From: Strigamia acuminata
Taxonomy: Eukaryota > Arthropoda > Chilopoda > Geophilomorpha > Linotaeniidae
Length of the DNA stretch: 64,000 nt
Assembly (NCBI GenBank): GCA_949358305.1
Contig: OX442322.1
Span: 3,286,001-3,350,000, forward strand
Direction of reading: 5' to 3'
The notes beneath the pieces are model-generated. The model was given only the letters and a program-made list of their open reading frames with translations, was not told where the DNA came from and did no database searches. Below, one piece after another: positions 9,556 through 27,237 of this stretch (its first letter is position 1; each line of letters starts with the position of its first letter). The position numbers and the translations under genes are program-made.

Positions 9556-9585
9556 GCTAACCTAAACCTAACCTAACCTAACCTA
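9556..9585. repeat. Short TTAGG-type repeat
   Basis: CTAACCTAAACCTAACCTAACCTAACCTAG-type sequence, about five CCTAA units with one variant unit. It equals TTAGG on the other strand, the common arthropod telomere repeat. It is only about 30 bp and sits between the tandem duplication and gypsy E, so it is interstitial here. Confidence 0.75.
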
Positions 9586-11444
9586 GACATCCTCATTCTC
9601 CTGTCCAGGAACCACCACTTTATGCCTCTAAGTTCTGTTGAGCCAGAAATGATGGATTGTCCATTAATTGCCTGTGCCAAAGGAACCATTCTTACAACAA
9701 CACCTGTTGTTTCATGAACGGCCGTGTTGTATGAGAATAGAAGAAATGGTAAAAACTCGTCCCAGTCAGTGTGTTCTTTGTTGACATAACTTTGCAACAT
9801 TTTTGCGAATGTCGCGTTTAACCTCTCAGTTAATCCGTTTGTTCTAGGATGGTATCCTGACGTTGTTTGATGCAAACTTTTGAACAAATTTGATACCTCT
9901 TTAACCATTTTATTCCTGTATTCCGTTCCACGGTCGCTTAGGATTTCTCTTGGACTGCCTTCTTTGAGAATTACTTCATACAGCAATGTCTTCGCAGCTT
10001 CCAAAGCTGTACACGCTTCTGCAGGTCTTGCTAATGCGAATCTTGACAAATAATCAGTTACTACAAAAACAAATTTATTTCCAAGTTGTGATAATGGAAA
10101 TGGTCCAAGTGTGTCTATTCCAATTCGCTCAAAAGGCTTTGAGACTGTTGACCATGGCTGCATTAATCCTTTTGCTGGTGTGGTCATCGTTTTTGCTTTT
10201 GCGCAGTGTTGGCCGGACAAGACATAATTTCTCACATCTTTGTAGATTCTTGTCCAGTAGAATCTTGTTCTTATTCGTTTCCACGTTTTTGCCAATCCTA
10301 AAAGAGCCCCTAGTAATCTGTCGTGCATTTCATGCAATACATCTTTTTGAAGTTGTTTTGGAACTACTAGTAATAAATCTTCTATGTTTAGGGAACTATT
10401 TAACTTTTTCTTTCTAAACAATGTTTTATTTTGAAGTACGAACTGCTTTAGTGGTCGTCTTCTCTTTCTTGGAAGTTGCTCTTGGTTTTCTACTGCTGTT
10501 ATTAGGTTCAGAATTTTGGGATCCTTCCTCTGCTCGGCAGAGAGGTCCAAATTTTCTAAGAAAAGTGAAGGTAATTTTTCTATTTCTTCTTCACTCAATT
10601 CTTCCTGGATCCTACTTAAAGTGTCAGCATCTGTGTGCTTCTCGTCGCTTTTATGGAATATTTCATAGTCATAATCAACTAATTGCAGCGTCCACCTGAC
10701 TAAGCGTCCATTTGGATTTCGGACTCCTTTCAGCCATTGGAGGACCGAATGTTCGGTGATAATTTGGAATTTCTTTCCATACAAGTACGATCTAAAATTC
10801 TCAATTGCAAAAATGATTGCTAGACATTCTCTTTCATTTGCGGTGTAGTTTTGTTCAGCTGTGCTCATCAAACGACTTCCATAGGCGATAACGCGCTCTT
10901 GGTTGTTTACTTTTTGTTTCAGGATCACTCCTAAGCCATAGGCGCTTGCGTCAGTTGAAATCATGAACGGCTGCGTACAATTTGGATGCACTAACACCGG
11001 CACTGTTATTAATGCTGTTCGGAGCATGTGGAATGCTTTATCGTGGGGTGGTCTCCAGTCGAACTTTTCATCCTTTTTGGTTAAATTCACCGGAGGTTTG
11101 GAAATGTCCGCAAAACCAGCGATGAACTTCCAGTAATACGAGCATAATCCAAGAAAACCACGTAGTTGTTTGATGTTCACAGGAATTGGAAACTTAGCTA
11201 CTGAATCCAGGTTCCTGGAATCCGGTGAAATACCTTCAGCATCAACCACATGTCCGAGGTATCGAATGGTGTGTGTCGCAAACATACATTTGCTTAGCTT
11301 GACTTTGAGATTTGCCATTTTAAGCTTTTGAAAAACTGCCTCCAAATCGACGAGGTGCTGGTCGAAAGTCTTTGAAAACACTATCAAATCGTTGATGTAC
11401 TCAATACATACTTTTCCAAAGAGGTTTCCAAGCACTTTATTCAT
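9573..11444 (-). pseudogene. Gypsy E: RT C-terminus, RNase H and integrase
   Basis: Minus-strand Ty3/gypsy pol. It begins inside RT with EYINDLIVFS, where the first Asp of the catalytic YxDD is Asn, so RT is dead. RNase H follows (STDASAYGLGVIL, YTANERECLAIIFA). The integrase zinc region (EMHDRLLGALLG .. SGQHCAKAK) has lost one His and one Cys of HHCC. The integrase core keeps GIDTLGPFPLS, LSDRGTEY and NGLTERLN. After YNTAVHETTGV the sequence becomes unrelated to integrase and the ORF drifts into TTAGG-type DNA, so the 3' end and LTR are missing. The upstream RT part is in another frame (11437-11830). Confidence 0.85.
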
Positions 11445-11830
11445 TAGTTTTTGAAAGGCCTTGTCCTAAGACATTGAACTCATAATGGCCTGAAGTTGTC
11501 GTAAATGCAGTCTTTTTCTTGTCCGCTTCATCGATTTCTATCTGGAAATATTCATGGATTAAATCCATCATTGTGAAATACTTCGCAGCCGCTAGTTGAT
11601 CTAGGATGTCGTCGATGCGCGGTAAGGGATAAACCATTTTCTTTGTTACTGCATTTAAACGTCTCCAATCGACGCAATATCTCCATTTGCCGTCTCTTTT
11701 CTTGATGAGTAGTACTGGAGCACTCCATGGGCTCTCGGATTCTCTTATTACTCCCATGTCGAGTAACTTCTTTGTTTCAGCAACAGATCGTCGGTAAGGT
11801 TGTAAATGGATTGGAAGAGAATCTCCAATA
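11437..11830 (-). pseudogene. Gypsy E: RT N-terminal part
   Basis: Continues gypsy E upstream on the minus strand. The open frame reads IDIGDSLPIHLQPYRRSVAE, then GVIRESESPWSAPVLLIKKR, YCVDWRRLNAVTKK and KYFTMMDLIHEYFQIEIDEA, which are the fingers and palm of gypsy RT. The frame breaks at GLSKTNE, where a few bases are lost before NKVLGNLFGKV (11444). Confidence 0.8.
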
Positions 11831-11901
11831 TCGATTCGATGTTTAATCGCTTGAGGTCTGCCTAGGTCGCTGTCAGATGTTGCAAATCTATCCGAATTTT
11901 T

Positions 11902-12505
11902 CTACAGCAATTGTCGCATCAGCTGCTGTTGTGCTGACGTCATATTCTTATTTGCCATGGCCGTGCTAAAGTCAAATTGATTAGTTTTATTTTCATTCAA
12001 CAGGCCAGACTCAATTACATAAAAAGCTTTTGCAATTGCTGACTTTTTTCCTAAATAGATTGTCTGTTTAGTTGGGTTCGTAACACGCAGAACTCCTTCA
12101 CCTTTTCTGAATTTTGTGAGTGTCTTGCAACTAATTACTCCAAATCGGTCAATTACTCCACTGGGTGGTTCTATAAATAATTCATCATCTATTTTCTTTG
12201 CAATCTTTATTGGAACTATATATTCATGTAAAGCTGGTATCGTTTTTGGTTTTAAAACCCGGGCTATGTAATTTTGATTGGTATAATTCTTTGACATTGG
12301 GAAAACTTCTTGTTGTTCATCTTTTGGGCCTACAAAGATCTTCTGTTGGTCATAGTCGAGCTGGCACCTTCCAGATCTCAAAAACCTGTCTCCTGGCGTC
12401 CAAATCCATTAACGATCAACACGTCAATGGTGTGTTGTTGTTGTCCAACATCAATGATTATCTTGGTTCTTCCTTCTAGAACTATCAATGAACCATCTAC
12501 AACTC
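11902..12505 (-). pseudogene. Gypsy E: protease C-terminal half and linker to RT
   Basis: The ORF 11902-12381 encodes a linker between protease and RT (RCQLDYDQQKIFVGPKDEQQ, PSGVIDRFGVISC, LRVTNPTKQTIYLG). Upstream, to 12505 in a shifted frame, the sequence reads VVDGSLIVLEGRTKIIIDVG, like the flap side of a retropepsin. The catalytic half lies on the far side of element F (27055-27237). F therefore inserted into the protease region of an already frameshifted E. Confidence 0.7.
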
Positions 12506-12856
12506 TGTGATGATTACAAATCGATAGTTATCAATGTTCACCATAGATGGCGCTGTTTAACCAACGCGCGTATTTCAAACTCGGTTAAAACTAAAAAGTG
12601 TGATAAATAATTATTTAAGACACGATGAATAAAATATAACTATTTTATTCAATGAATTAAGTATTAATTACTTGATGATGTTGATTCCATCGAATCAATA
12701 TCCACATTACTTACCTGTCGAAGGGAACCAATTGGACCCTTCCGGACCCCAACTGGGCCCATCTGGACATAGTCATATATTAGGTCCGGACTAGTGACCC
12801 AAGAATCCGCCGATTCGTACGCTGATTGGCTGTCGCCAATCTAGTAGTTCTACAGA

Positions 12857-12868
12857 ACTATATAAGCT
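12857..12868 (+). promoter_or_regulatory. TATA box of element F LTR
   Basis: ACTATATAAGC with GC-richer flanks, the best core-promoter match in the LTR. Transcription would start about 30 nt downstream, near 12890. The same site recurs in the 3' LTR, 12,809 bp further on. Confidence 0.6.
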
Positions 12869-13428
12869 CCAGTTTCTCACTCTCCCAGGCTCTTGGCTTG
12901 ATAACTGAACTTGTATATTGTCTGTAGTTGAATTGTTATCGTTTGATTTCATTATTCTCTATCGACACATCAGGCCACCTCAGCTCTCCACAGATAGTAT
13001 TCATTACTATCTGTTATTGTTGTTGTAAGGCCTTTTCGGGAAGGCCAACTCCGGTAATAGACATGCATTCGCATGAAATGGCCCCGTAACGTTAGCCAGC
13101 TGTTCTACGGGACAGTAGGACTTCGTACGGTGGCTTAATATAACGGTCGTATACAGTACGACCTTGCTAAATGAAAGTAGGTCCCTCAGCTAACTGGCCA
13201 CAGTCCGCTGCAGGATGGTTGTTGTAAACAGCCCACGCAGGTTCCCGTCTTTCTACGATTGGTCCTTCCGCTCGTTAAAAGTCGGTAAAGGCCTAATGTA
13301 CAGGTAACACGCCGGGTTGGTAGCCCGTGAGTAATATCTAAAGATGTTGCGATAAAACAACTACCTGGATAATGGTAATCCAACGGCAGTGGCCAAGTAA
13401 TATTTACCCGGTGCTCGATCATTGGATC

Positions 13429-13510
13429 CCGCCATCGTAAGGCATGCTGGCGGATGGAGGAGTCAAATCCTCCCGCGATGGTTCTCTCGACCGTCGTGAC
13501 GGTCCCCGCC
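13429..13510 (+). ncRNA. Structured RNA module 1 in F leader (cis element)
   Basis: Predicted fold: CCATCG (13432-13437) pairs with CGATGG (13476-13481). It encloses the conserved TAAGGCATGCTGGCGGAT and a hairpin GGAGGA/TCCTCC (13456-13461, 13468-13473). A second hairpin GACCGTC/GACGGTC (13489-13495, 13498-13504) follows, then CCCCGCC, which could pair with GGCGG at 13449-13453. Module 2 keeps these pairings with base changes on both sides. The module lies in the predicted transcript, so a role in translation, packaging or dimerisation is possible. This is inference. Confidence 0.5.
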
Positions 13511-13710
13511 CCATCATACCCTCCGGGTTAGTAACCCGTGAACAGGAGTTGAACAACACTGTGCTAAACAAATTACTCGGGCATTGGTAATCCTGTATTG
13601 GCAATATCTTTTAAACCCGGTAAGTCCATAGAAATGTTTACCTGGTGGTTGGTACCACCGATAGCGAATTAAAGCACACAATTAAATACTCGGCGCCTGA
13701 TCACGAGATC

Positions 13711-13792
13711 TTGTCGTCGTAAGGCATGCTGGCGGATGGAGTCTCAACAACTCCCGCGACGTTCTCTCAATTGTCGTGACGGTCCCCGCCCA
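13711..13792 (+). ncRNA. Structured RNA module 2 in F leader (cis element)
   Basis: Second copy of the fold, 283 bp after module 1. CGTCG (13715-13719) pairs with CGACG (13757-13761). Hairpin GGAGT/ACTCC is at 13738-13742 and 13750-13754. TTGTC/GACGG (13771-13775, 13778-13782) uses G-U pairs where module 1 has G-C. The unpaired core TAAGGCATGCTGGCGGATGGA is unchanged apart from its last stem. The mix of conserved loop and compensated stems points to selection on RNA structure. Confidence 0.5.
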
Positions 13793-14247
13793 ATTAATAT
13801 TTATATAACAATTCATTTGTTGTATTATTTTAATTACTTCACTTTATTCATTTGAAACAATGGAATATTCTGCCGAATATTCCTGTTTATGCGTAGGACT
13901 CTTCGCATATTTAGATAATCGATGCTGCGGACCAAATACGTCTCCGTAGCGATATTTGTGACGATGCCGCAAGTCAGCCGTATCCCTCTGGCTTCGCCCG
14001 GATCCTCAACCAGTTGATGCCGCCCGTTTACACGCGTCAAGAACCCATTATTGTTATTATTCAGTAATAAATATGTCATGTCACACTAAAACTGTAAGTT
14101 ATTTCTACTTGATCACATATTCATGTTTGTAAAGGCTCCCATAGCTTATCTCGGTTAGGTTGTTGCTAAACTTAGCAACGTCTTGTATAAACCGAATTAT
14201 CTATCTTAAATGGCTATTAAATCAGCCAAAAGTAGAATCGTCACAAG

Positions 14248-14265
14248 TGGAGGTTCTACCGAGAT
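14248..14265 (+). other. Primer-binding site 1 of element F (tRNA-Gln-like)
   Basis: TGGAGGTTCTACCGAGAT starts 2 nt after the LTR. It complements the 3' end of insect tRNA-Gln with CCA (known form ..ATCTCGGTGGAACCTCCA) with one mismatch. The tRNA sequence is recalled, not searched. Confidence 0.6.
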
Positions 14266-14430
14266 AAGGCTGCAAAAAATTCAAATGAATTTTGAGTTTG
14301 TGTATTATGTGTATGAGAATTCGGAAATGTGCTTACGGTGATAAAATTTCGAATGAAATTTTTGTGTGATAGAATCCATGTATGTATAATGTTTTTCTTT
14401 TTATAGGAATCTCGTTAGAACCGTCACAAG

Positions 14431-14448
14431 TGGAGGTTCTACCGAGAT
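14431..14448 (+). other. Second PBS copy of element F
   Basis: The identical 18-mer, again preceded by GTCACAAG as at the LTR end, 183 bp downstream of PBS 1. The duplication includes the last six LTR bases, so it spans the LTR/PBS junction. Confidence 0.75.
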
Positions 14449-15555
14449 AGGCTGCCAAATTTTAAATAAAATTTGAAGTTTTGTATGTCTATGGTGAATT
14501 CGAGTAGTGTAACGTTTATGGTGATTTTTGTGTGTAAAAAATAAGTTTCGAACGAAATTTATATTTGCGTTTAATATATTTTATTCTGTTTTAGAACTTC
14601 TCGCAAGAAAATAAGTATAATTCACTTTATCCCGATTCTCCGCCGTGGAAATTATACGTTTTAACAAAATAATAATTTCTACCGCGTGGTCAGGCCTAAA
14701 GGCCTAACCCCGAGAACGGAAAAATCTTGCCCGAACTTGTTGAAGTTGGTTCCGCCCGGGTAACGTCATTTTGTCGTCGACAATCTGACAAAACCACGCG
14801 GTCGGGCCTAATTTTGAAAAGTTGACTTTTGTTGGAATTATTAAAGAATTCTATCAATTTAGCAGTGGTTTTAATTTTAGAATATTCTTTTAAATGTATT
14901 TTGCTTGAGACTTCAAGTTAAACCTAAATTTATTTGCCTAAATAAATTGGAAAGAAAATTGACGATTTTCGAAGGAATTAAAATTTATATTTTATTTCAA
15001 AATGGGTTTACCTTATTTAACAGACTTGGTCTACATTAAAATATTGGTTAAAAATCATGATCTCAAGTCATTGAAATCGAATTTTACGAATGGAATGCCA
15101 TTCGAATTTTAGCGGAGAAGAATTCTCGCTGTTGTGTTGCCTAGCAACCCGTGTTGTGCAGAAAAGCCGTCGATTCAAACGAATTGGCGCGTCTTTTGAA
15201 ATTACGAGTTTTAAAACTTTAAAAAATTCCATAAAGGTGATCCTTCATTTATTAATAAATGCGGTGATATTTTAAAATATTTTGAAAAGTATCCATTTTG
15301 TTTGGTGACTACGTCATAACATTGGAATCTGTCAAGATTGCGGTTCCACGAACTTGATGATTTCCACCAATCTCGGACGAGATTGGACTCTCGCGAGACT
15401 AGCGTTGATACTTGACCAATCAGAGAGGTGTATCGAAGTATCCATACTTCTTTTCGAACTAGTGTGACCACTGCTTCGTTTACGATCCTCCTGAACGTTT
15501 GCAACTTCATCGTTATCTCTCAGACTTAGGAAATTTTCTTAGTTTAAGTTTAGTT

Positions 15556-17802
15556 ATGACTAATAACCAGCATCACATGAACACCCGTGGTAAAGAAAGA
15601 ACTTGTTTGACCGGTGGAATGAATCTATCCGGGTTTATACCTGTTCCTAATGGAATTGACGAAGTGGGAAACCACGCGGTCCATAATGGCGTTTCAAATG
15701 AAACAGCCGGACCATCTGGAGAGAATAGAGCTCCACGTGAACCTACTCCGCCTGGAGAAGAGGAATGCATTCCTGAAGGTTCTCATTTAGGCCGAGGCGG
15801 TCTATTATTTTGTCAGGATCACGGTTTGAACCCAAACCAATTTAGATCTTTGACCGAAGTATTAGATTTTGTGCACGCGCATCGTGCTACGTCGGAGCAA
15901 CCTAATTCCCCAGCCAGCCAAAGATTAAATAATTTTAGTCCCACTTCTTCGACGCCTATTTCTAGATATAGAAATAAAAATGCACAACCTCCTCGTCAAG
16001 ATCAGTCGAATTTGACACCAGGAGATTTTAATCGTGCTTTCCAACAACGATTACGAGCGAATAACTTCGCTCGCAACCAACAAAGAGGATTTACAAATCC
16101 AGAGAACTTTGAGAATACGTTCAACAGAGCGAATTTGGGTCCGCCTAATATGGCCAACCCTAACCCAAGTTTTCCAAACGGATCAAATAGTTGTCCGAAT
16201 CTCGCTGGAAATTTGAACCCAAATTCAGGTGCGACAAGAGGTCCAAACCACCGTTTTGACCCAAATTCCAGATTTGCAAACAATTCTAGTCCAGCACCTA
16301 ACATGCAAAGGGGTCATCCAGTTCCTCCGAACTCGAATAACCCAAATAATCCGAACGATTTAAATAATCCTTCTACTGGAACTCCAGGAAATTCAAATAA
16401 CTATTTGAATCGGGGTACGCCAGGTAATTCGAACTATCGTCCGAATTTTGGTAATCAAGAAAGTTCGCACAACCGTCCGAATTTTAACAATCGAGATAAT
16501 TCTAATAATCATTCGAATTATGGGAACCAAGGTAATTCGAATAACCATTCGAATTTTGGTAACCACAGTAGACCGAATCAAGGAGGGTCGAATAATTTCA
16601 ACCCCAACAATGGTGGCTCAAGTCAAAATAACTCGAGTCAACTAAACAATGGCGGATCGTCAAAAGACAATTCGCGCCCCCCCAGTAGCTTTGGAATGAC
16701 GGCTGATGACCTCGCGTCAATTGCCTCGACCATGCACAAGTTGATGCAGGCAGGAAAAAGTTCCGCCACTGTCCCTCAAACTAACTGTTTGAAACCACCA
16801 GATATCCCTGTATTCTCCGGAAAAGCAGAAGAAAGCGAACGCTTTCTCAATATTGTAAAAAATGTCGCTTTCCTGCGAAACATGTCACTCGATGACATGC
16901 TTGTTAAAGGCGTGGCCGGTTATTTAACCGAGCAAGCGCATGGTTGGTTTCATGAACGGAGAGAAGATTTCATATCTTGGGAAGTATTTGAACAGGCGTT
17001 CAAAGAACGGTTTGTAGCCACTCGACAAGAGCGGACGAACCAACTAACTAAGTTGAAACAACTGGAAACGGAAAGTCTTTACGACTTTATGCACAAATAT
17101 TACCAGTTATGGATATTACAAGACAGTCTTGATGCAAAAGGAGCTGGTTGTCTTTTTATCGGGAGTGTAACTCCTGCTAACGATTTGCTTTTGCATACGC
17201 AAGGCATAGCGGATCTGCCTCTGACAGAGATTTATGCCGTTATAACTAAAAATAAAGGCTTGTACAGTCGTACAGCTAATGGAGCAAGGGAAAATATTTC
17301 CAATCCAGTTGTTTTCCCACCTCGGAAAACTGACACACGTCCTCAGTCGAAGGCAAATGCTAAATCTTTAACTTTGGATTCACAAGAACAACTTAATATT
17401 TGTGAAGAAGAGTTACCTGAGGAATGCGAAGCTGTCTATTTAATAAATGGAACAGTAGATCAGACCAGACGTGGTCAATTAGTTTGTTACCACTGTAAGA
17501 AACCAGGACACATGCGTCGAGAATGTCCAGATTTAAAACCACGTGCAAATTTCAACTCTGAAGAGTTGCAAAAACGAAGTACCCCGGATTCCCCGACTGT
17601 GGATCCTACTTCTAAACGTCCTAATAACAGATGGATAACTCAAGAAGTGTTGGATGCAACACTAGATGCTAAACTTGATGCGAAACTTAATACTTTTGAA
17701 AATAAGTTACAAACTTCGCTGACTAACTCGTTGGCAGAAATGGTCAAGACTTTGATCAAGCCAGAATCTGCTGATTCAAGTGCGACTAGTTCAAAAAACT
17801 AA
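15556..17802 (+). CDS. gag: Element F Gag (748 aa)
   Basis: Structural protein that assembles the particle and binds the RNA genome. Start chosen at the first ATG in frame (MTNNQHHMNTRGKERT); upstream codons are open but lack ATG. Residues about 130-400 are low complexity, very rich in Asn, Pro, Ser and Gly (many NNxPNF/NSNN repeats), which is prion-like in composition. A retrotransposon capsid domain follows at about 450-530 (AHGWFHERREDFISWEVFEQ). A zinc knuckle CYHCKKPGHMRREC lies near 644-657. The acidic/amphipathic tail ends at TAA 17800-17802, one codon after a slippery heptamer. No breaks seen. Confidence 0.92.
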   Translation: MTNNQHHMNTRGKERTCLTGGMNLSGFIPVPNGIDEVGNHAVHNGVSNETAGPSGENRAPREPTPPGEEECIPEGSHLGRGGLLFCQDHGLNPNQFRSLTEVLDFVHAHRATSEQPNSPASQRLNNFSPTSSTPISRYRNKNAQPPRQDQSNLTPGDFNRAFQQRLRANNFARNQQRGFTNPENFENTFNRANLGPPNMANPNPSFPNGSNSCPNLAGNLNPNSGATRGPNHRFDPNSRFANNSSPAPNMQRGHPVPPNSNNPNNPNDLNNPSTGTPGNSNNYLNRGTPGNSNYRPNFGNQESSHNRPNFNNRDNSNNHSNYGNQGNSNNHSNFGNHSRPNQGGSNNFNPNNGGSSQNNSSQLNNGGSSKDNSRPPSSFGMTADDLASIASTMHKLMQAGKSSATVPQTNCLKPPDIPVFSGKAEESERFLNIVKNVAFLRNMSLDDMLVKGVAGYLTEQAHGWFHERREDFISWEVFEQAFKERFVATRQERTNQLTKLKQLETESLYDFMHKYYQLWILQDSLDAKGAGCLFIGSVTPANDLLLHTQGIADLPLTEIYAVITKNKGLYSRTANGARENISNPVVFPPRKTDTRPQSKANAKSLTLDSQEQLNICEEELPEECEAVYLINGTVDQTRRGQLVCYHCKKPGHMRRECPDLKPRANFNSEELQKRSTPDSPTVDPTSKRPNNRWITQEVLDATLDAKLDAKLNTFENKLQTSLTNSLAEMVKTLIKPESADSSATSSKN

Positions 17803-20800
17803 ATCCGGGGGACGAAGGTTTGTTCCATCCCCCAGAAGTGGCTACTGCTACGTCGGAATCTTTATTTATGGGTGTAGACACAACTTGTCTTGAAATAGCC
17901 ACTAGTCATAGTGGCGGAGTAGAGGAAAATCTGCAAGAAATGACAGAACAATTAAAAAATCTGACATTATTTCCACACAAGTGTTACACGAAGAAATTCT
18001 GTAGACTTCGCCGACTCAACAGAGTCTTAGGCGGTAATAATTTGCACAATATTACTTTAGGTAATAATAAAGATGATCCTCGAATGAAGATCACGATTGG
18101 TGGGCTCACCTACAATGCGCTCATGGATACAGGAGCATCTCAATGTTACATTGGGGAACAACTCTTGTCTGAAACTCAGGCTTTGCCAGAATTTTTGCAA
18201 GAGGCCCCCAGAAATATGTTGGTTAACGCTGTAGGCGTAGCACACAAGCCTATCGGACAAATAACTTTGTGCGTACAATGGGCTGATGAATTTACACCAA
18301 TGAATTTCATCGTTTTAGCAAAACGAGTTTGTGGCTTGATACTTGGTCACAATTTCATGCGCAGACAGAAAATTAGTCCGCATCCACATTTACAAGAGTT
18401 CTCTTGTGCAGATAAACCTAATTGGTCCGCTCCTTATGAATCGGAAGAGGCCAATTTGGCCCTCGCCCCGTTGAATCGAATTACTTTCGATTATTTAGGA
18501 CTGTCGTCCACTCTCAACTCAATTGAGTTAACAGACACTCCTGTGTTGACTTGGGATGAAAAATTAGTTGAGGAGAGCGACTGCACTCCAGAACAACGAC
18601 TAGCACTTCGCGAAGTGATTAACTCGATACCGAATGTATTTCGTGATCAAGTTGGGTGCACTAACGTGACCCAACATCGTATTAAGTTCAAAGAAGGGCA
18701 TTCATTGCCCAAAATGCAGTATAGAATGTATAACCCGGCCAAGAGAGCCATTATGACCAAACTAGCTGCAGAATTGGAACAGGATGGACTCATTGAAAAG
18801 GCCAAAGGGCCCTTCATAAGTCATCCCGTCATTGTTGCGAAGCCTGACGGCTCGTATAGGATGTGCATTGACTACCGGTGGCTAAATGCCATCACTGAAG
18901 TCGAAGTAATACAAATGCCAAGTATTGACCTTTTATTGCATAATACTGGTCCTGCTAGGTATTTTACGTCAATTGACCTTGTCAAAGGTTACTACCAAGT
19001 CGAGATGTGTAAAGAAGATCGTCCAAAGACGGCATTTTACACGCCAAATGGTCCATATCAGTTTGTGCGAATGCCGTTCAGCCTTTGCAATGCGCCTTGT
19101 ACTTTCCAACGTCTGATGGAAGGCATTTTAGGCTCAGCTTTGCAAGACTACGCGTTAGTTTATTTGGATGACGTAATTGTGTATTCAGATAATTGGGATG
19201 ATCATCTCAAACATGTTCGAGATGTTTTGGAAAGGCTTAACCAAGCCAACATGACAATAAATAAAGCGAAATCTCGTTTTGGGCGTACAGAATTAAAATT
19301 CTTGGGCCACTGGATTAAACCCGAAGGTCTCTTCGGTGATCCCGATAAAATATCGGCGATCATGAAATTTCCCACCCCCACGTGTGCTAAAGACATTCAG
19401 CGCTTTCACGGCATGACTAACTTCTTCAGGAAGTTTGTTCCAAATCACGGAACTATTGCCGCACCATACACACGTATGATGAATGAGAAAACTCCATTTG
19501 AATGGGGAGAGGAGCAGACAGAAGCTTTTAATAAAATTAAAGAGCTACTTTGTGGTGACAACTGTCTACACAAACCAGATATGACTTTGCCATTTGTTGT
19601 CATGACTGACGCTTCTCATGAAGGCTTAGGAGCTGTCCTTTGCCAAGACGTCGATATATTCGATGAAAAGAAGCAGAAAAACATTTCTGTACCCAGACCT
19701 GTAGCTTATGCAAGCAGAGTTTTACGTGGAGCAGAGAAGCGTTATACAACGCCGGAACTCGAATGTCTCGCAGTCGTGTGGGCTATTGATCGATTTAAAC
19801 CATATCTCGAATATGGTACGTTCACTTTAGAGTCAGATGCAGAAGCACTGAAATGGTTGATGCGAACGCCTGAACCATCTGGGAAATTTGGCCGATGGGC
19901 CTTAAGAATCCAATGTGGAAATTTTAAAATTATTTTTCGAAAAGGTGCTGCTAACCAAGTTGCGGACGCACTTTCTAGAGCCCCACTAACAGAGGAAGAC
20001 ATTCCTCTTCGTGATCATGTGGAACCTGTCGAAATTAAACAATATTGGCCTGAGTGGGACGGAAATCCTTTTGTTTCATTAAATCGTGCCCCAGAAAAAC
20101 GAGAATATTTGGCTAGTGCGCGTTCCTATTTTTCAGAAAATTCTAAAGAATGTTCTGAAGAAAAGGAGGGGGAGGAAGTACAAGAAACCTTGTACAGTGC
20201 GTTGACTGAAGTACTTAAAGAAGTCCCTCCTACAAGGAGAGAAATAATAGATGCTCAGTTACTGGATATTGAATGCAAACGCATTCGAGAATATTTATTA
20301 AATGACAAGGTTGTTGGGATACCACAATCTGAAATAAAAGAATGGAAAAACAAAGTCAAAAACTATTGTTTAGACAAAAAAGAAGTTGATGGTGATCAAA
20401 TGATCATCTATTTTAACCCTTCATTCGAAGAGGAATTAAACGATTCGGGAAACGGCTTTAAAGCCGTTGTACCCAGTTCACTCGTAAAACGAGTACTCTT
20501 CGCTTGTCATGGCCACCCCCTAAGCGGTCACGCTGGGATGAGTAAGACGCTTGAGAAAACGCGTTTAATATATTTCTGGCCTGGTATGAGTAGAAGTGTC
20601 AGGAACTACGTCAAAAGCTGCACGCACTGTGCTCAGTACAAGCCTATTCAACAGAAAAGGCACGCAGCTCCTTACACACCACACAACATGACCAATCCTT
20701 GGGAATGTATTAACATGGACTTGATGGGCCCGAAACCCGCGGGAAGGTCCCAAAACCAATATATTTTTGTCATTATTGACAATTGTACCAAATTCGTCGA

Positions 20801-21998
20801 AATTAAGGCTTTGACAAAAGCCACGAGCGCTAACTGCGTTCAAGAATTAAGATCTGTTACAAACAGATGGGGACACCCCAAAAAGATTGTGAGCGATAAC
20901 GGAAAACAATTTGTTTCTGATATTTACAATGAGTATTGCGATATGTACAACATTCGCCCGTCTCATACGAGCACGTATCATGCCCAGGCGAACCCGACAG
21001 AGCGAGCCAATAGAGATATAAAAACGATGCTGGCTGTGTACACAGATGTGCACACGCAATGGCCACGATATTTAGACGAATTCGCGTTCGCGATGAGAAA
21101 TAATGTCTCAGCAGCAACGGGCTCAAGCCCGATGTTACTGAACACGGGACGAATCGTAACATTACCTTTCGACCCAAGGATTATTAAACATGCCAATCCA
21201 TTTGACAAAGAAAATCCAGAAAAATATGTCAGAGTACTATTGGATGTATTGCGCAGATCGCATCAAGAGATGCATCGCAGAATTCAATTGAATTTTGAAC
21301 GACATAGGAAAATACACGAACAAAAGTTCGTAATTACGGAGTTCGAAGTTGGAGATTTAGTTTGGAAGCAAACTCACATTCTCTCGTGCGCAGATAAAAA
21401 TATCTCCGCTGGATTTGCTGAGAAGAGAGATGGACCATGGGAAATTACTAAAGTACTTCCTGGCGGAGCGTATAAATTACGCAAATTAGCTGATGGTTCG
21501 ATTGAAAAATCAGTGAATATTAAAGCGTTGTACCCCTATACGCCTTCGTACCCGATTGAGACTTGGAAAGTAGGACAAAAGTCCGCCTCTTACTCGCCTC
21601 AAGAAAATCCTAAATGGATGGACGAAAGTAATCAACTTCCGGATGCTGAAGAAATGGAATTAATTCCTGAAACTTCTTCAGAAATTCCAATGGAATTATC
21701 CGACTCAACTTCGGTGCAAATTGACAAATCTGCGCCCATTAAGTCTAAACATAGACATAGACAACGATTAACTGCTATAGAAAAGAAAGCGGCGTTAAAA
21801 AGAGGCGAAATTCCAAAGAAACCACCTCGAAAACCTCGCAAACCCCAATCGGTAGTTCCACGAACTAGCACTCGTCCACGACGAGAACGAAAACCAAATC
21901 CTAAATATGCAGATGAAAATTTCGTGCGAAACATCACTGCAGTATTTAAAAAACCATACCAACAACGAGGAAAAGCCTCAAAGTTCTGTTGGAATTGA
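17790..21998 (+). CDS. pol: Element F Pol (PR-RT-RH-IN), made by frameshift
   Basis: Enzymes for copying the RNA and integrating the cDNA. Numbered from 17820: protease LMDTGASQCYIG with DTGA at 103-106; RT with VIVAKPDGSYRMCIDYRWLN and VYLDDVIVYS near 447-452; RNase H MTDASHEGLGAVL and YTTPELECLAVVWA; integrase zinc finger (HGHPLSGHAGMSK .. CTHCAQYK) from about 897; integrase core with MDLMGPKPAG, VSDNGKQF and NPTERANRD (DDE). The tail is very basic (RKPRKPQ, RPRRERKPNPKYADE). RT has MPFSLCNAPCTFQ where MPFGLCNAPATFQ is usual. No stop or frameshift inside. There is no start ATG near the front, as expected for a Gag-Pol fusion. Confidence 0.93.
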   Translation, partial: FKKLNPGDEGLFHPPEVATATSESLFMGVDTTCLEIATSHSGGVEENLQEMTEQLKNLTLFPHKCYTKKFCRLRRLNRVLGGNNLHNITLGNNKDDPRMKITIGGLTYNALMDTGASQCYIGEQLLSETQALPEFLQEAPRNMLVNAVGVAHKPIGQITLCVQWADEFTPMNFIVLAKRVCGLILGHNFMRRQKISPHPHLQEFSCADKPNWSAPYESEEANLALAPLNRITFDYLGLSSTLNSIELTDTPVLTWDEKLVEESDCTPEQRLALREVINSIPNVFRDQVGCTNVTQHRIKFKEGHSLPKMQYRMYNPAKRAIMTKLAAELEQDGLIEKAKGPFISHPVIVAKPDGSYRMCIDYRWLNAITEVEVIQMPSIDLLLHNTGPARYFTSIDLVKGYYQVEMCKEDRPKTAFYTPNGPYQFVRMPFSLCNAPCTFQRLMEGILGSALQDYALVYLDDVIVYSDNWDDHLKHVRDVLERLNQANMTINKAKSRFGRTELKFLGHWIKPEGLFGDPDKISAIMKFPTPTCAKDIQRFHGMTNFFRKFVPNHGTIAAPYTRMMNEKTPFEWGEEQTEAFNKIKELLCGDNCLHKPDMTLPFVVMTDASHEGLGAVLCQDVDIFDEKKQKNISVPRPVAYASRVLRGAEKRYTTPELECLAVVWAIDRFKPYLEYGTFTLESDAEALKWLMRTPEPSGKFGRWALRIQCGNFKIIFRKGAANQVADALSRAPLTEEDIPLRDHVEPVEIKQYWPEWDGNPFVSLNRAPEKREYLASARSYFSENSKECSEEKEGEEVQETLYSALTEVLKEVPPTRREIIDAQLLDIECKRIREYLLNDKVVGIPQSEIKEWKNKVKNYCLDKKEVDGDQMIIYFNPSFEEELNDSGNGFKAVVPSSLVKRVLFACHGHPLSGHAGMSKTLEKTRLIYFWPGMSRSVRNYVKSCTHCAQYKPIQQKRHAAPYTPHNMTNPWECINMDLMGPKPAGRSQNQYIFVIIDNCTKFVEIKALTKATSANCVQELRSVTNRWGHPKKIVSDNGKQFVSDIYNEYCDMYNIRPSHTSTYHAQANPTERANRDIKTMLAVYTDVHTQWPRYLDEFAFAMRNNVSAATGSSPMLLNTGRIVTLPFDPRIIKHANPFDKENPEKYVRVLLDVLRRSHQEMHRRIQLNFERHRKIHEQKFVITEFEVGDLVWKQTHILSCADKNISAGFAEKRDGPWEITKVLPGGAYKLRKLADGSIEKSVNIKALYPYTPSYPIETWKVGQKSASYSPQENPKWMDESNQLPDAEEMELIPETSSEIPMELSDSTSVQIDKSAPIKSKHRHRQRLTAIEKKAALKRGEIPKKPPRKPRKPQSVVPRTSTRPRRERKPNPKYADENFVRNITAVFKKPYQQRGKASKFCWN
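17793..17833 (+). promoter_or_regulatory. -1 ribosomal frameshift signal, element F gag/pol
   Basis: Gag codons TCA AAA AAC TAA contain the heptamer A AAA AAC (17793-17799) in the correct phase. A -1 slip continues at CTA 17799 in the pol frame, which is open from 17790. After a 7-nt spacer, GGGGGA (17807-17812) pairs with TCCCCC (17828-17833), with an inner GAA/TTC pairing. Heptamer, phase, spacer and stem all match known retroviral signals. Confidence 0.85.
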
Positions 21999-23047
21999 TA
22001 AGTTTTATTCAAAACTTGAAGACTGTAATTATTTACATGTCTGACAGGTGTAGTGATTTATAATCTCAACACCGGGGGACAAGATATTACGATATTTATT
22101 GAAATTTATATTAAAAATATGAATTTGTTGCGAAGACTTAAATATTCGATAGAATATTTTAATTTTTGGTTGTATTTACATGTATTTTAACCAAAATACA
22201 GAGAATTACTTTGAAAAGTGATAATCTCGCGTAATTACGAAGGTACGAGACTTACGAGGTGTGATTAAACCTCGAACCCGACAATTAATAGGGAATAAAA
22301 TTCCCAGGGTTCATTGCACACAAACACTTCGTAAAACACGTGGATACCAGTGACTTCGTCCCTTCGTCTCCTCTTCACTTTTTCGACTTGAGAATTTCGA
22401 CGCTAATTCATTTAGCCAACTGCAAACACGAAACTTCCAACAGTAAGTAGTTTCGTTATTTTTCTTTGACCAAAGAATTGAAAATTGTTCGCAACAATTG
22501 ATAAATTATCGGCGTCCCGATAAAAGTTAAAAAATTCGCGTGTAGTATAAGCGTGAATCGGCATTAAATCACTCTGGAAGTTTAAACTATTCAGTCGAAT
22601 AGTTGAGTTAAATATTAATAATGAATTATTAAGATTTAAGTATGTAGGCACTAATTATTTAAATCAAGTCGCGGTCGAGGCTTGCATAAATTATTTGGCG
22701 ATGAATTTTCGATGTAAGATATTTATTAGACTAAGTATTAATTAATTAATGCGAAAAGTTATCTTTGATACTCGGAAGATGGATTAAATAGTTTACAAAA
22801 TTAAAGGGATTTTTTCTTTTGAAAAATCAACAAGTTGCGATTTTCGATGAAAATCGCTGTCAGGCGAGTCCATTCTCGTGTCATAAACACAAGGGGAATG
22901 TGACTCATTAGTGTCACTTGTTAAGGGTTATAAATAACTCGAGTTGTGTATTTTCGTTGCAAACAATACGTTTTAATTCTTTGGACTCAAGGAATGATTA
23001 TTTAGAGTGGAATTATTTTTAATAAAATAATTTATTTGCGTCTACAG
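21999..23047 (+). other. Element F spacer between pol and ORF3
   Basis: About 1 kb of AT-rich non-coding DNA. At 22072-22080 it has CCGGGGGAC, close to the 3' PPT. It ends TTTGCGTCTACAG right before the ORF3 ATG, a good splice-acceptor match. No ORF is supported on either strand (22412-22651 minus is AT-rich chance). Confidence 0.6.
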
Positions 23048-24568
23048 ATGGGAAGTGGTAAACACCGCTCAAAACGGAGTCATCGACGACACCGTCATGA
23101 AAGCTCGTCCAGCTCGTCCACCTCGTCTAGTGACGAGCAACGCCGTTCAGCGGAACGCGCTTACATGAGGGCCCAACCGATACCGACGGCGCCCGCCTCG
23201 ATGTACGCCCTGACGCCGCTGCAACTCGCAACGCTTAATTGGCTAAGCGTCCATCCGGACGGACTTCCGCTCGACTTAAATGCGATGATGCAGGCCCCAT
23301 CCACTTCTGCGCAGCCAACTATTTATGAGTCGGCGCAATTGGCCCCGATGGCCCAAGTGGCGTATCCACCCGCGAACGTTATCAACGTCCCGTTGGCCCC
23401 GCATTCGCCAGAATTTCGGCCGCCAACTGCAAGCGTGGCGCCCACCGTCGCCAACACGTCGAATGCGGCTGCACCGACTGTGATGGGACAATCAGCGTAT
23501 GTTACGCATCTTCCTGCTGGTGCTGAGTCTTCTGCATCAGAATATGGATGGAATGAGCCGCCGCCGGGCGCTTTGCGTTATTCGGAGCCTGTTTCTCGCA
23601 ACCGCGAGTACCGAGCGGCCAATAAGGCACGAAAAAAGGACGAGAAGGCCCGCCTGCGCAAGGAGCAGTGCGAACGAGACATGGCAGCCGGAATACCTCA
23701 CGATAACATCGTGACGGACCAGGCAACTGAGACGATCTGCCCCTTTTGCGTCGGTTGTGGGTGGTGCTGCGGTGCATCCGCAGGTTCCTCATTAATGAGA
23801 TGTCCCAACTGTCGAGGAAGGAAAACGCGACCGCGTTCGGAGCCGTGGCGCAAGGAGGTTCAGCCCCACGTGGTGAAAGGCATTAAGCCTAACGAGAAGC
23901 GATGTTGGGCTCACTGCCCAAAGTGCCGACTTTTCCTGAATAGTCGCGGCGAAGCGGTTTACATCGACCCGCGCTTCCTCACCTGGGCCCGCGCTGAAGC
24001 CAACGCCGGCGTAAGAGTCGAACTCCTTCGACAGTCGCCGCCGCCGTCTGAAGACTCCGAAGTTTCAACTGAAACTGTCCAGGCCGTCGAGAGCGCCGGA
24101 AGCGAGGTGCAGGAAGAATTCGTTCGACCAAGAGCGATGTCGCGTGGGCGAGGCTGTCTTACGCTCGACCGAGCGAGGGAAATTGCCGGGGTTCAACGAA
24201 CCAATATCTTGGCACGAGGGCGAGCTCGTAAGCTGCAACAGGCTGTTGAAACGTCGTCTAAACCAGTGGAGGATCCTCCAGCGGCCGTAACCGACGTGTC
24301 CAGCGCCCCTCCAGCGTCTAAGTCTGAGACTTCGGACGACGCACAGTTCGAGGACGCCGAGGAGTTGCTTTCCGTCGTCGATTTCGTGGCGGAATTGCTC
24401 GAGGATCTACCGTTCCCACCTCCGAGCCCAGAGGAGATTGAAGCTCCGGAGGAAGCTGTGTTTTCCGCCGTCTCGACAGAGGCGACTGAAGAGTCGGATT
24501 TTCTGACTTCTGCTGAAGTCGAGAAGAAGGAAGAGAAAGTTTCGACTGACGTCGAAAAAGAGGATTAA
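23048..24568 (+). CDS. Element F ORF3: Cys-rich accessory protein (506 aa), not Env
   Basis: Unrecognised protein. The start is ATG 23048, directly after a splice-acceptor-like CTACAG. N-terminus: Arg/His/Ser-rich (KHRSKRSHRRHRH, SSSSSSTSSSDEQRR), nuclear-signal-like. Middle: Pro/Ala/Thr-rich linker to about 165, then a basic helix (KARKKDEKARLRKEQ). Next come CxxC clusters (CPFCVGCGWCCG, CPNCRGRK, CWAHCPKCR) that look like a zinc-binding unit. The C-terminal 150 residues are strongly acidic. No signal peptide, membrane segment or furin-type site, so it is not an envelope. GC content is higher than in the AT-rich flanks, which supports real coding. Full-length and unbroken. A nucleic-acid-binding regulator is plausible but unproven. 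Confidence 0.8.
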   Translation: MGSGKHRSKRSHRRHRHESSSSSSTSSSDEQRRSAERAYMRAQPIPTAPASMYALTPLQLATLNWLSVHPDGLPLDLNAMMQAPSTSAQPTIYESAQLAPMAQVAYPPANVINVPLAPHSPEFRPPTASVAPTVANTSNAAAPTVMGQSAYVTHLPAGAESSASEYGWNEPPPGALRYSEPVSRNREYRAANKARKKDEKARLRKEQCERDMAAGIPHDNIVTDQATETICPFCVGCGWCCGASAGSSLMRCPNCRGRKTRPRSEPWRKEVQPHVVKGIKPNEKRCWAHCPKCRLFLNSRGEAVYIDPRFLTWARAEANAGVRVELLRQSPPPSEDSEVSTETVQAVESAGSEVQEEFVRPRAMSRGRGCLTLDRAREIAGVQRTNILARGRARKLQQAVETSSKPVEDPPAAVTDVSSAPPASKSETSDDAQFEDAEELLSVVDFVAELLEDLPFPPPSPEEIEAPEEAVFSAVSTEATEESDFLTSAEVEKKEEKVSTDVEKED

Positions 24569-25314: not shown

Positions 25315-27054
25315 TGTGATGATTACAAATCGATAGTTATCAATGTTCACCATAGATGGCGCTGTTTAACCAACGCGCGTATTTCAAACTCGGTTAAAAC
25401 TAAAAAGTGTGATAAATAATTATTTAAGACACGATGAATAAAATATAACTATTTTATTCAATGAATTAAGTATTAATTACTTGATGATGTTGATTCCATC
25501 GAATCAATATCCACATTACTTACCTGTCGAAGGGAACCAATTGGACCCTTCCGGACCCCAACTGGGCCCATCTGGACATAGTCATATATTAGGTCCGGAC
25601 TAGTGACCCAAGAATCCGCCGATTCGTACGCTGATTGGCTGTCGCCAATCTAGTAGTTCTACAGAACTATATAAGCTCCAGTTTCTCACTCTCCCAGGCT
25701 CTTGGCTTGATAACTGAACTTGTATATTGTCTGTAGTTGAATTGTTATCGTTTGATTTCATTATTCTCTATCGACACATCAGGCCACCTCAGCTCTCCAC
25801 AGATAGTATTCATTACTATCTGTTATTGTTGTTGTAAGGCCTTTTCGGGAAGGCCAACTCCGGTAATAGACATGCATTCGCATGAAATGGCCCCGTAACG
25901 TTAGCCAGCTGTTCTACGGGACAGTAGGACTTCGTACGGTGGCTTAATATAACGGTCGTATACAGTACGACCTTGCTAAATGAAAGTAGGTCCCTCAGCT
26001 AACTGGCCACAGTCCGCTGCAGGATGGTTGTTGTAAACAGCCCACGCAGGTTCCCGTCTTTCTACGATTGGTCCTTCCGCTCGTTAAAAGTCGGTAAAGG
26101 CCTAATGTACAGGTAACACGCCGGGTTGGTAGCCCGTGAGTAATATCTAAAGATGTTGCGATAAAACAACTACCTGGATAATGGTAATCCAACGGCAGTG
26201 GCCAAGTAATATTTACCCGGTGCTCGATCATTGGATCCCGCCATCGTAAGGCATGCTGGCGGATGGAAGAGTCAAATCCTCCCGCGATGGTTCTCTCGAC
26301 CGTCGTGACGGTCCCCGCCCCATCATACCCTCCGGGTTAGTAACCCGTGAACAGGAGTTGAACAACACTGTGCTAAACAAATTACTCGGGCATTGGTAAT
26401 CCTGTATTGGCAATATCTTTTAAACCCGGTAAGTCCATAGAAATGTTTACCTGGTGGTTGGTACCACCGATAGCGAGTTAAAGCACACAATTAAATACTC
26501 GGCGCCTGATCGAGAGATCTTGTCGTCGTAAGGCATGCTGGCGGATGGAGTCTCAACAACTCCCGCGACGTTCTCTCAATTGTCGTGACGGTCCCCGCCC
26601 AATTAATATTTATATAACAATTCATTTGTTGTATTATTTTAATTACTTCACTTTATTCATTTGAAACAATGGAATATTCTGCCGAATATTCCTGTTTATG
26701 CGTAGGACTCTTCGCATATTTAGATAATCGATGCTGCGGACCAAATACGTCTCCGTAGCGATATTTGTGACGATGCCGCAAGTCAGCCGTATCCCTCTGG
26801 CTTCGCCCGGATCCTCAACCAGTTGATGCCGCCCGTTTACACGCGTCAAGAACCCATTATTGTTATTATTCAGTAATAAATATGTCATGTCACACTAAAA
26901 CTGTAAGTTATTTCTACTTGATCACATATTCATGTTTGTAAAGGCTCCCATAGCTTATCTCGGTTAGGTTGTTGCTAAACTTAGCAACGTCTTGTATAAA
27001 CCGAATTATCTATCTTAAATGGCTATTAAATCAGCCAAAAGTAGAATCGTCACA
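25315..27054 (+). repeat. 3' LTR of element F (1,740 bp)
   Basis: Same length as the 5' LTR. Differences seen by eye: G/A near 26267, A/G near 26477 and two in the GATC..GAGATC stretch near 26511. Both structured modules are repeated here. Ends CGTCACA followed by the target duplication ACTC. Confidence 0.95.
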
Positions 27055-27237
27055 ACTCAATCGAACATCTGGACAGGGCTGATATTTGAGCTGCAGCGTT
27101 CTTACCAAATCTTCGCTAATGATGTTACGAAAACCTCCAGAATCCAAGACACCAGTAATTTCCATACTATTTAACACTACTGGAATCTGCAAAAGTTCAT
27201 CTGTGGCGTTCAACTTGATGATTTCTAACTTTCTCAT
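27055..27237 (-). pseudogene. Gypsy E: protease N-terminal half
   Basis: Right-hand continuation of gypsy E past element F. The minus strand reads NSMEITGVLDSGGFRNIISE with the retropepsin DSG triad, then VRTLQLKYQPCPDVRL up to the insertion point. The upstream KKLEIIKLNATDE-like segment links it to gag. The reading frame does not rejoin the 12505 part cleanly, so a frameshift predates F. Confidence 0.75.

What the first reader, a model, noticed from the sequence alone, without database searches (positions are those of the whole stretch)
13429..13792. Two covarying RNA modules in the LTR of element F
Seen: the same fold occurs at 13429-13510 and 13711-13792. Stem pair 13434:13479 (A-U) becomes G-C in copy 2, a hairpin G-C pair becomes U-A, and two G-C pairs become G-U, while the core TAAGGCATGCTGGCGGAT is constant. 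This is the signature of a selected RNA structure. A single-element duplication with compensation inside one LTR is unusual.
Basis: partly seen in the sequence, partly recalled or inferred. Interest (0 to 1): 0.75.

Follow-up and report, generated by a model that had tools for sequence, protein, structure and literature searches.

The report
Duplicated RNA fold in retrotransposon LTR
A jumping gene of the Ty3/gypsy type carries, twice in each of its end repeats, a short RNA shape that evolution appears to have kept folded; it matched no RNA family in the library searched and may help the element's RNA to be recognised, although its job is not proven.

Summary
The modules (13416-13510, 13698-13790) lie in the 12506-14245 LTR of a Ty3/gypsy element, downstream of a TATA box. 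The 19-base core has 1193 genome matches at up to 3 mismatches, against 5 for the reversed control.

Relatives support hairpin H0, a conserved stretch TAAGGCATGC, and a three-way junction of stems P2, P3 and HB. On 83 distinct rows 96.2% of cells pair, with 71 double-change cells (shuffles 11.6). In HB, G-U cells outnumber A-C 152 to 7: the sense RNA folds. The doubling is shared by many copies. No Rfam match.

Best guess: a recognition domain of the genomic RNA. Fold well supported, function inferred. Against: in a tree-aware test no pair passes over the whole table and HB pairs do not stand out; P1 also stays mostly paired in the main families.

The parts
12506..14245 (+). 5' LTR of the element (TGTGATGAT...ATCGTCACA)
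   Evidence: 12506-14246 is 99.8% identical to 25315-27055; end bases read directly; 4 differences between the two LTRs
12859..12865 (+). TATA box upstream of the modules, same strand
   Evidence: TATATAA found; a TATA-like box also reads upstream of the module in the divergent LTR L130 (sequence printed)
13416..13510 (+). module 1 (whole)
   Evidence: model R1 match 112.1 bits (the model was built from this and relatives)
13698..13790 (+). module 2 (whole)
   Evidence: model R1 match 99.3 bits (same remark)
13417..13428 (+). module 1 hairpin H0 (13417-13420 with 13425-13428)
   Evidence: 97.5% of cells paired; in the 74 rows with a related 5' end only one pair shows double changes, in 2 rows
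13699..13710 (+). module 2 hairpin H0
   Evidence: same alignment
13438..13447 (+). conserved TAAGGCATGC, module 1 (unpaired in the supported fold)
   Evidence: 58 of 60 rows of A1, but most rows were found through this core; exact in 31 of 47 rows found by patterns without it
13720..13729 (+). conserved TAAGGCATGC, module 2
13449..13510 (+). module 1 closing stem P2 (13449-13453 with 13506-13510) of the three-way junction
   Evidence: 97.3% of cells paired, no double changes
13731..13790 (+). module 2 closing stem P2 (13731-13735 with 13786-13790)
13456..13473 (+). module 1 hairpin P3 (13456-13461 with 13468-13473)
   Evidence: columns 45-57: G-C 29, A-U 20 of 55 rows with letters; two P3 pairs rank first and second
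13738..13754 (+). module 2 hairpin P3 (13738-13742 with 13750-13754)
   Evidence: sequence
   Evidence: 95.4% of cells paired, 5 of 10 pairs with double changes; in the minimum-energy fold of copy 1
13755..13778 (+). module 2 hairpin HB (13755-13763 with 13769-13778, one bulged U)
26225..26319 (+). module 1 in the 3' LTR
   Evidence: model R1 107.4 bits
26507..26599 (+). module 2 in the 3' LTR
   Evidence: model R1 97.4 bits
15463..17802 (+). gag open frame (capsid-like, zinc knuckle)
   Evidence: Pfam Retrotrans_gag, zf-CCHC
17790..21998 (+). pol open frame (protease, RT, RNase H, integrase)
   Evidence: Pfam RVP, RVT_1, RT_RNaseH, Integrase_H2C2, rve

Best explanation
Each module is a cis-acting RNA domain of about 95 nt in the sense transcript of a Ty3/gypsy element. 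It consists of a small hairpin (H0), a single-stranded conserved stretch (TAAGGCATGC in most copies) and a three-way junction (closing stem P2, hairpins P3 and HB). It lies in the LTR downstream of the promoter-like TATA box, so it should be carried in the long untranslated leader, and again near the 3' end if the transcript runs far enough. Supported by the comparisons: the fold, its strand, its spread over many copies of one genome, its survival in divergent copies, and a doubling shared by many copies. Inferred: the fold presents the single-stranded stretch to a protein, most likely the element's own Gag (which has a zinc knuckle), to mark the genomic RNA for packaging and dimerization; two modules raise the avidity. 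Nuclear export through a bound protein is the nearest alternative.
For: Pairing kept through change: 96.2% of cells, 10 of 23 pairs with double changes, 71 double-change cells against 11.6 +/- 3.7 in shuffles; slid controls pair 23-58% (the alignment was fitted to this structure, and some H0 double changes come from rows with an unrelated 5' end). On a plain MAFFT alignment of 60 rows: 97.6% paired, 5 pairs and 14 cells with double changes against 1.9 and 3.7. Strand: HB has 152 G-U and 7 A-C cells in 80 rows; 57 of the G-U are one near-constant pair. RNAalifold against column shuffles over 8 LTRs gives z -3.8 (sense) and -0.4 (antisense) for 13690-13799. The 5 divergent rows keep P2, P3 and HB at 92-96%. 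Module 2 without the core stretch is more conserved than the LTR 3' of it (0.80 against 0.72 mean identity over 9 LTRs). Gag has a zinc knuckle. A review calls Ty3 RNA structure uncharacterized and packaging sequences not precisely defined (passages of PMC4974528).
Against: No functional data of any kind. In my tree-aware test no pair passes over the whole table: the best two, both in P3, have E 1.7 and 2.7 over 4186 pairs (about 0.01-0.02 if only the 25 named pairs are counted), and HB pairs do not stand out. RNAalifold's own consensus leaves P3 out. The null finds P1 far more paired than random placement gives (47 unpaired cells against 226.7, 0 of 300), so P1 is not excluded as a second state. 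Another LTR block (13940-14039) is as conserved (0.82) without a fold signal. The core is less constant than it looks: 31 of 47 in rows found without it. The palindrome GCATGC, which would suit dimerization, is lost in the divergent group.
Confidence: 0.5

Rival explanations
1. Nuclear-export element: the module binds an export factor or the element's own third protein (open frame 23006-24568), as retroviral CTEs bind NXF1 or as Cer1 needs its CERV protein, and two modules give the two binding sites.
For: Two modules per LTR in many copies. Third frame after pol with a very basic start (15 of its first 40 residues after the Met are K, R or H) and cysteine motifs. CTE is described as a 2-fold symmetric RNA motif recognised by an NXF1:NXT1 dimer (abstract PMC4330390); Cer1 genomic RNA needs a novel protein for export (abstract PMC10309623).
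Against: Divergent relatives show one module. No homologue of the third frame passed E 0.001 among the 7985 candidates scored, and whether it always accompanies the module could not be tested.
Confidence: 0.15
2. Translation element (IRES or reinitiation aid) in a long leader.
For: The leader from the estimated start to the gag ATG is about 2.66 kb with 41 upstream ATGs (the start is estimated from the TATA box). Other LTR stretches also show fold signals.
Against: The modules end about 1.8 and 2.0 kb before the gag ATG (15556). No Rfam match.
Confidence: 0.14
3. Bistable switch: the reader's stem P1 and hairpin HB exclude each other and both are kept in the main families; the RNA toggles between them.
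For: P1 paired in 91.7% and HB in 95.8% of cells in 75 rows of the main families; columns 20-66 never A-C in 60 rows; P1 above the random-placement null.
Against: HB about 10.6 kcal/mol better in 60 of 60 (pseudoknots not scored); C66 needs 2 changes on the tree; P1 broken in the divergent group; P1 20-66 E about 234 over all pairs.
Confidence: 0.1
4. Self-cleaving ribozyme, as hammerheads in the LTRs of plant retrozymes.
For: Compact fold with a conserved single-stranded core; ribozymes in LTRs are known (abstract PMC4918200).
Against: No ribozyme match in Rfam at E up to 10 in 12850-14100 and no match at E up to 1 in 13 relatives. HDV-like topology (recalled) needs P1 and P4, and P4 is not kept. 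Cleavage in both LTRs of a replicating LTR element would be costly (inference).
Confidence: 0.05
5. DNA-level element: protein-binding palindromes in the LTR (GATC...GATC, GCATGC) or an enhancer.
For: Inverted repeats are symmetric in DNA; LTRs carry regulatory sites (general knowledge).
Against: G-U cells exceed A-C 152 to 7 in HB, which DNA-level symmetry does not predict.
Confidence: 0.06

Closest known systems
Cis-acting leader structures of retroelements (retroviral Psi/DIS, Ty1 5' pseudoknot)
   Same: Conserved RNA fold towards the 5' end of the genomic RNA of an LTR element with a zinc-knuckle Gag.
   Different: No Rfam match; a three-way junction with a single-stranded core; two modules within one LTR; function untested.
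Retroviral constitutive transport element (CTE)
   Same: Repeated unit that could bind protein, in a retroelement RNA.
   Different: CTE is a 2-fold symmetric stem-loop (abstract); here two separate three-way-junction modules lie 282 nt apart, and divergent relatives show one.
Retrozymes (LTR hammerhead ribozymes)
   Same: Structured RNA inside LTRs.
   Different: Retrozymes are small non-autonomous elements with hammerheads (abstract); here an element with gag and pol frames and no hammerhead match in Rfam.
HDV-like ribozymes (topology recalled, not from a call)
   Different: P4 is not kept, and P1 competes with HB.

Membership tests
Any Rfam family | covariance-model match at the gathering score | tested here: not met
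   0 matches in the whole window at gathering scores; in 12850-14100 at E up to 10 one unrelated antisense match, sR53, E 4.4, below its gathering score; 0 in 13 relatives at E up to 1
HDV-like ribozyme | nested double pseudoknot with a conserved P4 hairpin (recalled) | tested here: not met
HDV-like ribozyme | self-cleavage at the 5' end of P1 | not testable with these tools
   needs an in vitro assay
Hammerhead ribozyme / retrozyme | hammerhead core match | tested here: not met
   no hammerhead match in Rfam searches
Retroelement packaging/dimerization signal | located in the transcribed leader of the genomic RNA | tested here: inconclusive
   downstream of a TATA box and, in L130, of a TATA-like box read in the sequence; transcription start, splicing and poly(A) site not measured
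Retroelement packaging/dimerization signal | conserved RNA structure on the sense strand | tested here: met
   but no single pair passes the whole-table tree-aware test
Retroelement packaging/dimerization signal | palindromic kissing loop (dimer site; recalled) | tested here: not met
   GCATGC is changed in 2 of 60 rows of A1 and absent in the divergent group
Retroelement packaging/dimerization signal | binding by Gag and effect on packaging | not testable with these tools
   needs binding and packaging assays
CTE-like export element | two-fold repeated binding site that exports unspliced RNA | tested here: inconclusive
   two modules in many copies but one in divergent relatives; export not tested
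Ty3/gypsy (Metaviridae) element | LTRs, gag, and pol in the order protease, RT, RNase H, integrase | tested here: met

The most novel reading that the evidence does not exclude
Probability: 0.08. Interest if true: 0.78.

Novelty: new member of a known kind. Interest (0 to 1): 0.45.

Why it matters
How Ty3/gypsy elements mark their genomic RNA is poorly known; a 2016 review says that Ty3 RNA structure remains uncharacterized and that packaging sequences are not precisely defined (passages of PMC4974528). A short, comparatively supported fold whose core recurs at more than a thousand places in one genome gives a concrete piece to test. It also shows that a covariation call from two copies can name the wrong stem when two stems share a strand.

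Tried and rejected
HDV-like ribozyme topology (P1, P2, P3, P4 nested): attractive because copy 1 allows it, rejected because P4 breaks in relatives. Hammerhead idea: no Rfam match. Dimerization through GCATGC: palindrome absent in the divergent group. A coding explanation: the modules are 95 and 93 nt long, loop lengths differ by 1-2 nt among families, and no frame gives like peptides in both copies over their whole length. Relatives in viral contigs: one 16-mer hit and 8 loose-pattern hits; in a call that also held L130 and L131, no model match in these 9 loci was better than E 0.19. Pattern search for core variants gave mostly chance (1719 places against 970 in the control). One search was a mistake of mine (the exclusion letter still allowed the main base), but its count (1102 exact places) is usable. 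One search was run to show covariation of HB and did not: only P3 stands out.

Rows dropped or missed. Before A1: L039, L044, L045 (unrelated), the whole loci L013 and L014 (each held a spurious match; their real modules repeat those of other loci), L073 (truncated 3' end), L083 (too short), L057 (different core); L050 was not found by the core scan. One search was given 86 of the 129 loci held; L092 and L108, found by pattern, gave no match there. Before the counts: L107, L121, L096 (partial) and L126 (insertion), and identical rows. In some searches one G of the GGAG stem was moved by one column by hand. Most A1 rows were found through the core itself, and selected a changed base at column 23; both bias what they touch.

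Full report
What is there. The finding lies in the 5' LTR (12506-14245) of an LTR element. The blast of the window against itself pairs 12506-14246 with 25315-27055 at 99.8%; the ends read TGTGATGAT...ATCGTCACA. Between the LTRs are a gag frame with a zinc knuckle and a pol frame with protease, reverse transcriptase, RNase H and integrase in Ty3/gypsy order. The genome is held without a name, 237.5 Mb in 157 contigs. Of the 120 pol relatives listed, the closest is 54% identical.

The observation. The two stretches and the named bases are as described. Their core is shared by 1193 places in the genome at up to 3 mismatches, against 5 for the reversed pattern; 1102 places match it exactly. The two LTRs of this copy are 99.8% identical, so the family has young members, and raw copy number says little about selection; the divergent copies are what matters.

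Relatives. Patterns that avoid the main variants brought in single-module families and divergent ones (partly 18), and short stretches of them were read. LTRs of other families match the window's LTR at both the 13281-13379 and 13523-13591 blocks and at both modules with one and the same stretch of theirs, so the window's LTR carries a tandem duplication of about 282 bp. Among the first 100 places there are 38 pairs, 30 of them at spacing 282, and 24 singles; that list shows exact cores only, so some singles may have a changed partner. The rows were chosen, not sampled. Most were found through the core, which makes the core look more constant than it is: in the 47 rows found by patterns without it, 31 have the exact TAAGGCATGC.

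The fold. On a plain alignment of 60 distinct rows, H0, P2, P3 and HB pair in 97.6% of cells, with 14 double-change cells against 3.7 in shuffles. On 95 model-aligned matches (83 distinct) they pair in 96.2%, with 71 double-change cells against 11.6 and 10 of 23 pairs changed on both sides. The second alignment leans towards the structure because it was fitted to it. One search counts double changes in all four H0 pairs, but without the rows whose 5' end is unrelated only one H0 pair has them, in 2 of 74 rows. P3 alternates G-C with A-U (columns 45-57: 29 and 20). HB alternates U-A, U-G and C-G at two pairs and G-C, G-U and A-U at two others. P2 varies too little to say more than that it is kept. 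RNAalifold on the first alignment proposes H0, P2 and most of HB, adds a 3-bp helix between columns 17-19 and 27-29, and pairs part of P3's 5' strand with the segment before P2's 3' strand, leaving P3 out; I prefer P3 because its pairs covary.

Strand. In HB, 152 cells are G-U and 7 are A-C in 80 rows; 57 of the G-U belong to one near-constant pair, the rest to variable ones. A fold on the antisense strand or a DNA-level palindrome would not favour G-U in this orientation. The TATA box at 12859 has the same orientation, and a compact divergent LTR reads with a TATA-like box upstream of its module (sequence printed; module placed).

P1 (13432-13437 with 13476-13481) and HB (13474-13483 with 13489-13498) share a strand. 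HB is better in 60 of 60 rows, by 10.6 kcal/mol on average, though that computation cannot score a P1 state joined with P2 as a pseudoknot. In the 75 rows of the main families P1 pairs in 91.7% and HB in 95.8%; in the 5 rows of the divergent group P1 pairs in 60% and HB in 92%. The group was set by its different core after seeing the rows. The covarying pair 13434:13479 rests on 2 changes on the tree, 1 of them forced by well-supported branches. Against this, columns 20-66 are never A-C in 60 rows, and a null that scatters substitutions over the tree leaves far more unpaired cells than P1 shows (47 observed, 226.7 expected, 0 of 300). The same null also favours H0 (0 of 300), P2 (2), HB (2) and, more weakly, P3 (10), and does not favour P4 (47). 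I therefore call P1 not the best-supported fold, but leave it open as a second state.

Tree-aware test. A home-made version of the R-scape idea (G-test with average-product correction, substitutions re-placed over columns along the tree, 200 nulls) ranks two P3 pairs first and second of 4186 (pair number), with whole-table E 1.7 and 2.7. Counting only the 25 named pairs gives about 0.01 and 0.02 (worked out by hand from that output). The first of the two, columns 47-54, mixes stems of two lengths, so its alignment is uncertain; the second, 45-57, is cleaner. HB pairs and P1 do not stand out. The case for HB is therefore the sum of kept pairing, the G-U excess, energy and the divergent rows, not single covarying pairs.

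Surroundings. Sliding RNAalifold over 8 LTRs gives sense-biased signals at the module (13690-13799, z -3.8 against -0.4), at 13060-13169 (-8.1 against -3.3) and at 13750-13859 (-8.5 against -1.4); others are as strong or stronger on the antisense strand (13810-13919, -9.9 against -30.1), and some z values rest on small spreads or on energies near zero. Module 2 without the core stretch has mean identity 0.80 over 9 LTRs, the 3' flank 0.72, and the block 13940-14039 0.82 without a sense fold signal. The module is thus one of several conserved parts of the LTR, not a lone island.

Function. Nothing here measures function. Its place in the likely transcript, its strand, the conserved single-stranded stretch next to a junction, and a zinc-knuckle Gag make recognition of the genomic RNA the likeliest role; I put packaging/dimerization first, export and translation next. 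A review of Ty1 and Ty3 says that packaging sequences and Gag sites are not precisely defined and that Ty3 RNA structure is uncharacterized (passages, PMC4974528). Export elements with two-fold design (PMC4330390, abstract) and the CERV export system of Cer1 (PMC10309623, abstract) are leads, not tests; so is a listed report that a ribosomal protein binds 5'-UTR sequences of some Drosophila transposons (PMC8872304, title and start of abstract only). Ribozymes in LTRs are known from retrozymes (PMC4918200, abstract), but nothing here points to one.

In print? Seven searches of the open paper library (lists capped: 20 of 22, 6 of 6, 3 of 3, 9 of 9, 12 of 73, 8 of 69 and 4 of 4 shown) listed nothing that, by title and the start of the abstract, describes this module.

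Verdict. A real, conserved, sense-strand RNA domain, doubled in many copies; an RNA of a familiar kind that matched no family in the library.

Noticed in passing
23006-24568 (+): Third open frame of 520 codons between pol and the 3' LTR; no Pfam match and no homologue at E 0.001 among 7985 candidates scored; very basic start and CPFC...CPNC...CPKC-type cysteine motifs.
   Followed up: partly
13940-14039: LTR block as conserved as the modules among 9 LTRs (0.82) but without a sense fold signal.
   Followed up: partly
13030-13170 and 13830-13919: Further LTR stretches with fold signals, the second on both strands; it reads with two hairpins (GGAATATTC...GAATATTCC and TATGCG...CGCATA).
   Followed up: partly
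9573-12408 (-): Three open pieces on the minus strand just upstream of the 5' LTR that read like the remains of another gypsy-like pol (not run against a family library).
   Followed up: no
12506-14246 and 25315-27055: The two LTRs differ at 4 of 1741 aligned sites, 3 of them inside the modules; the insertion looks young.
   Followed up: no
14233-14266 and 14416-14449: 34-nt direct repeat, 97% identical, at the LTR end and 183 nt further on; it holds a stretch that begins TGG and may be the primer-binding site (inference).
   Followed up: no
L130:1238-1332 (+): Compact divergent LTR in which the TAAGGCATGC core is replaced while P2, P3 and HB stay.
   Followed up: partly
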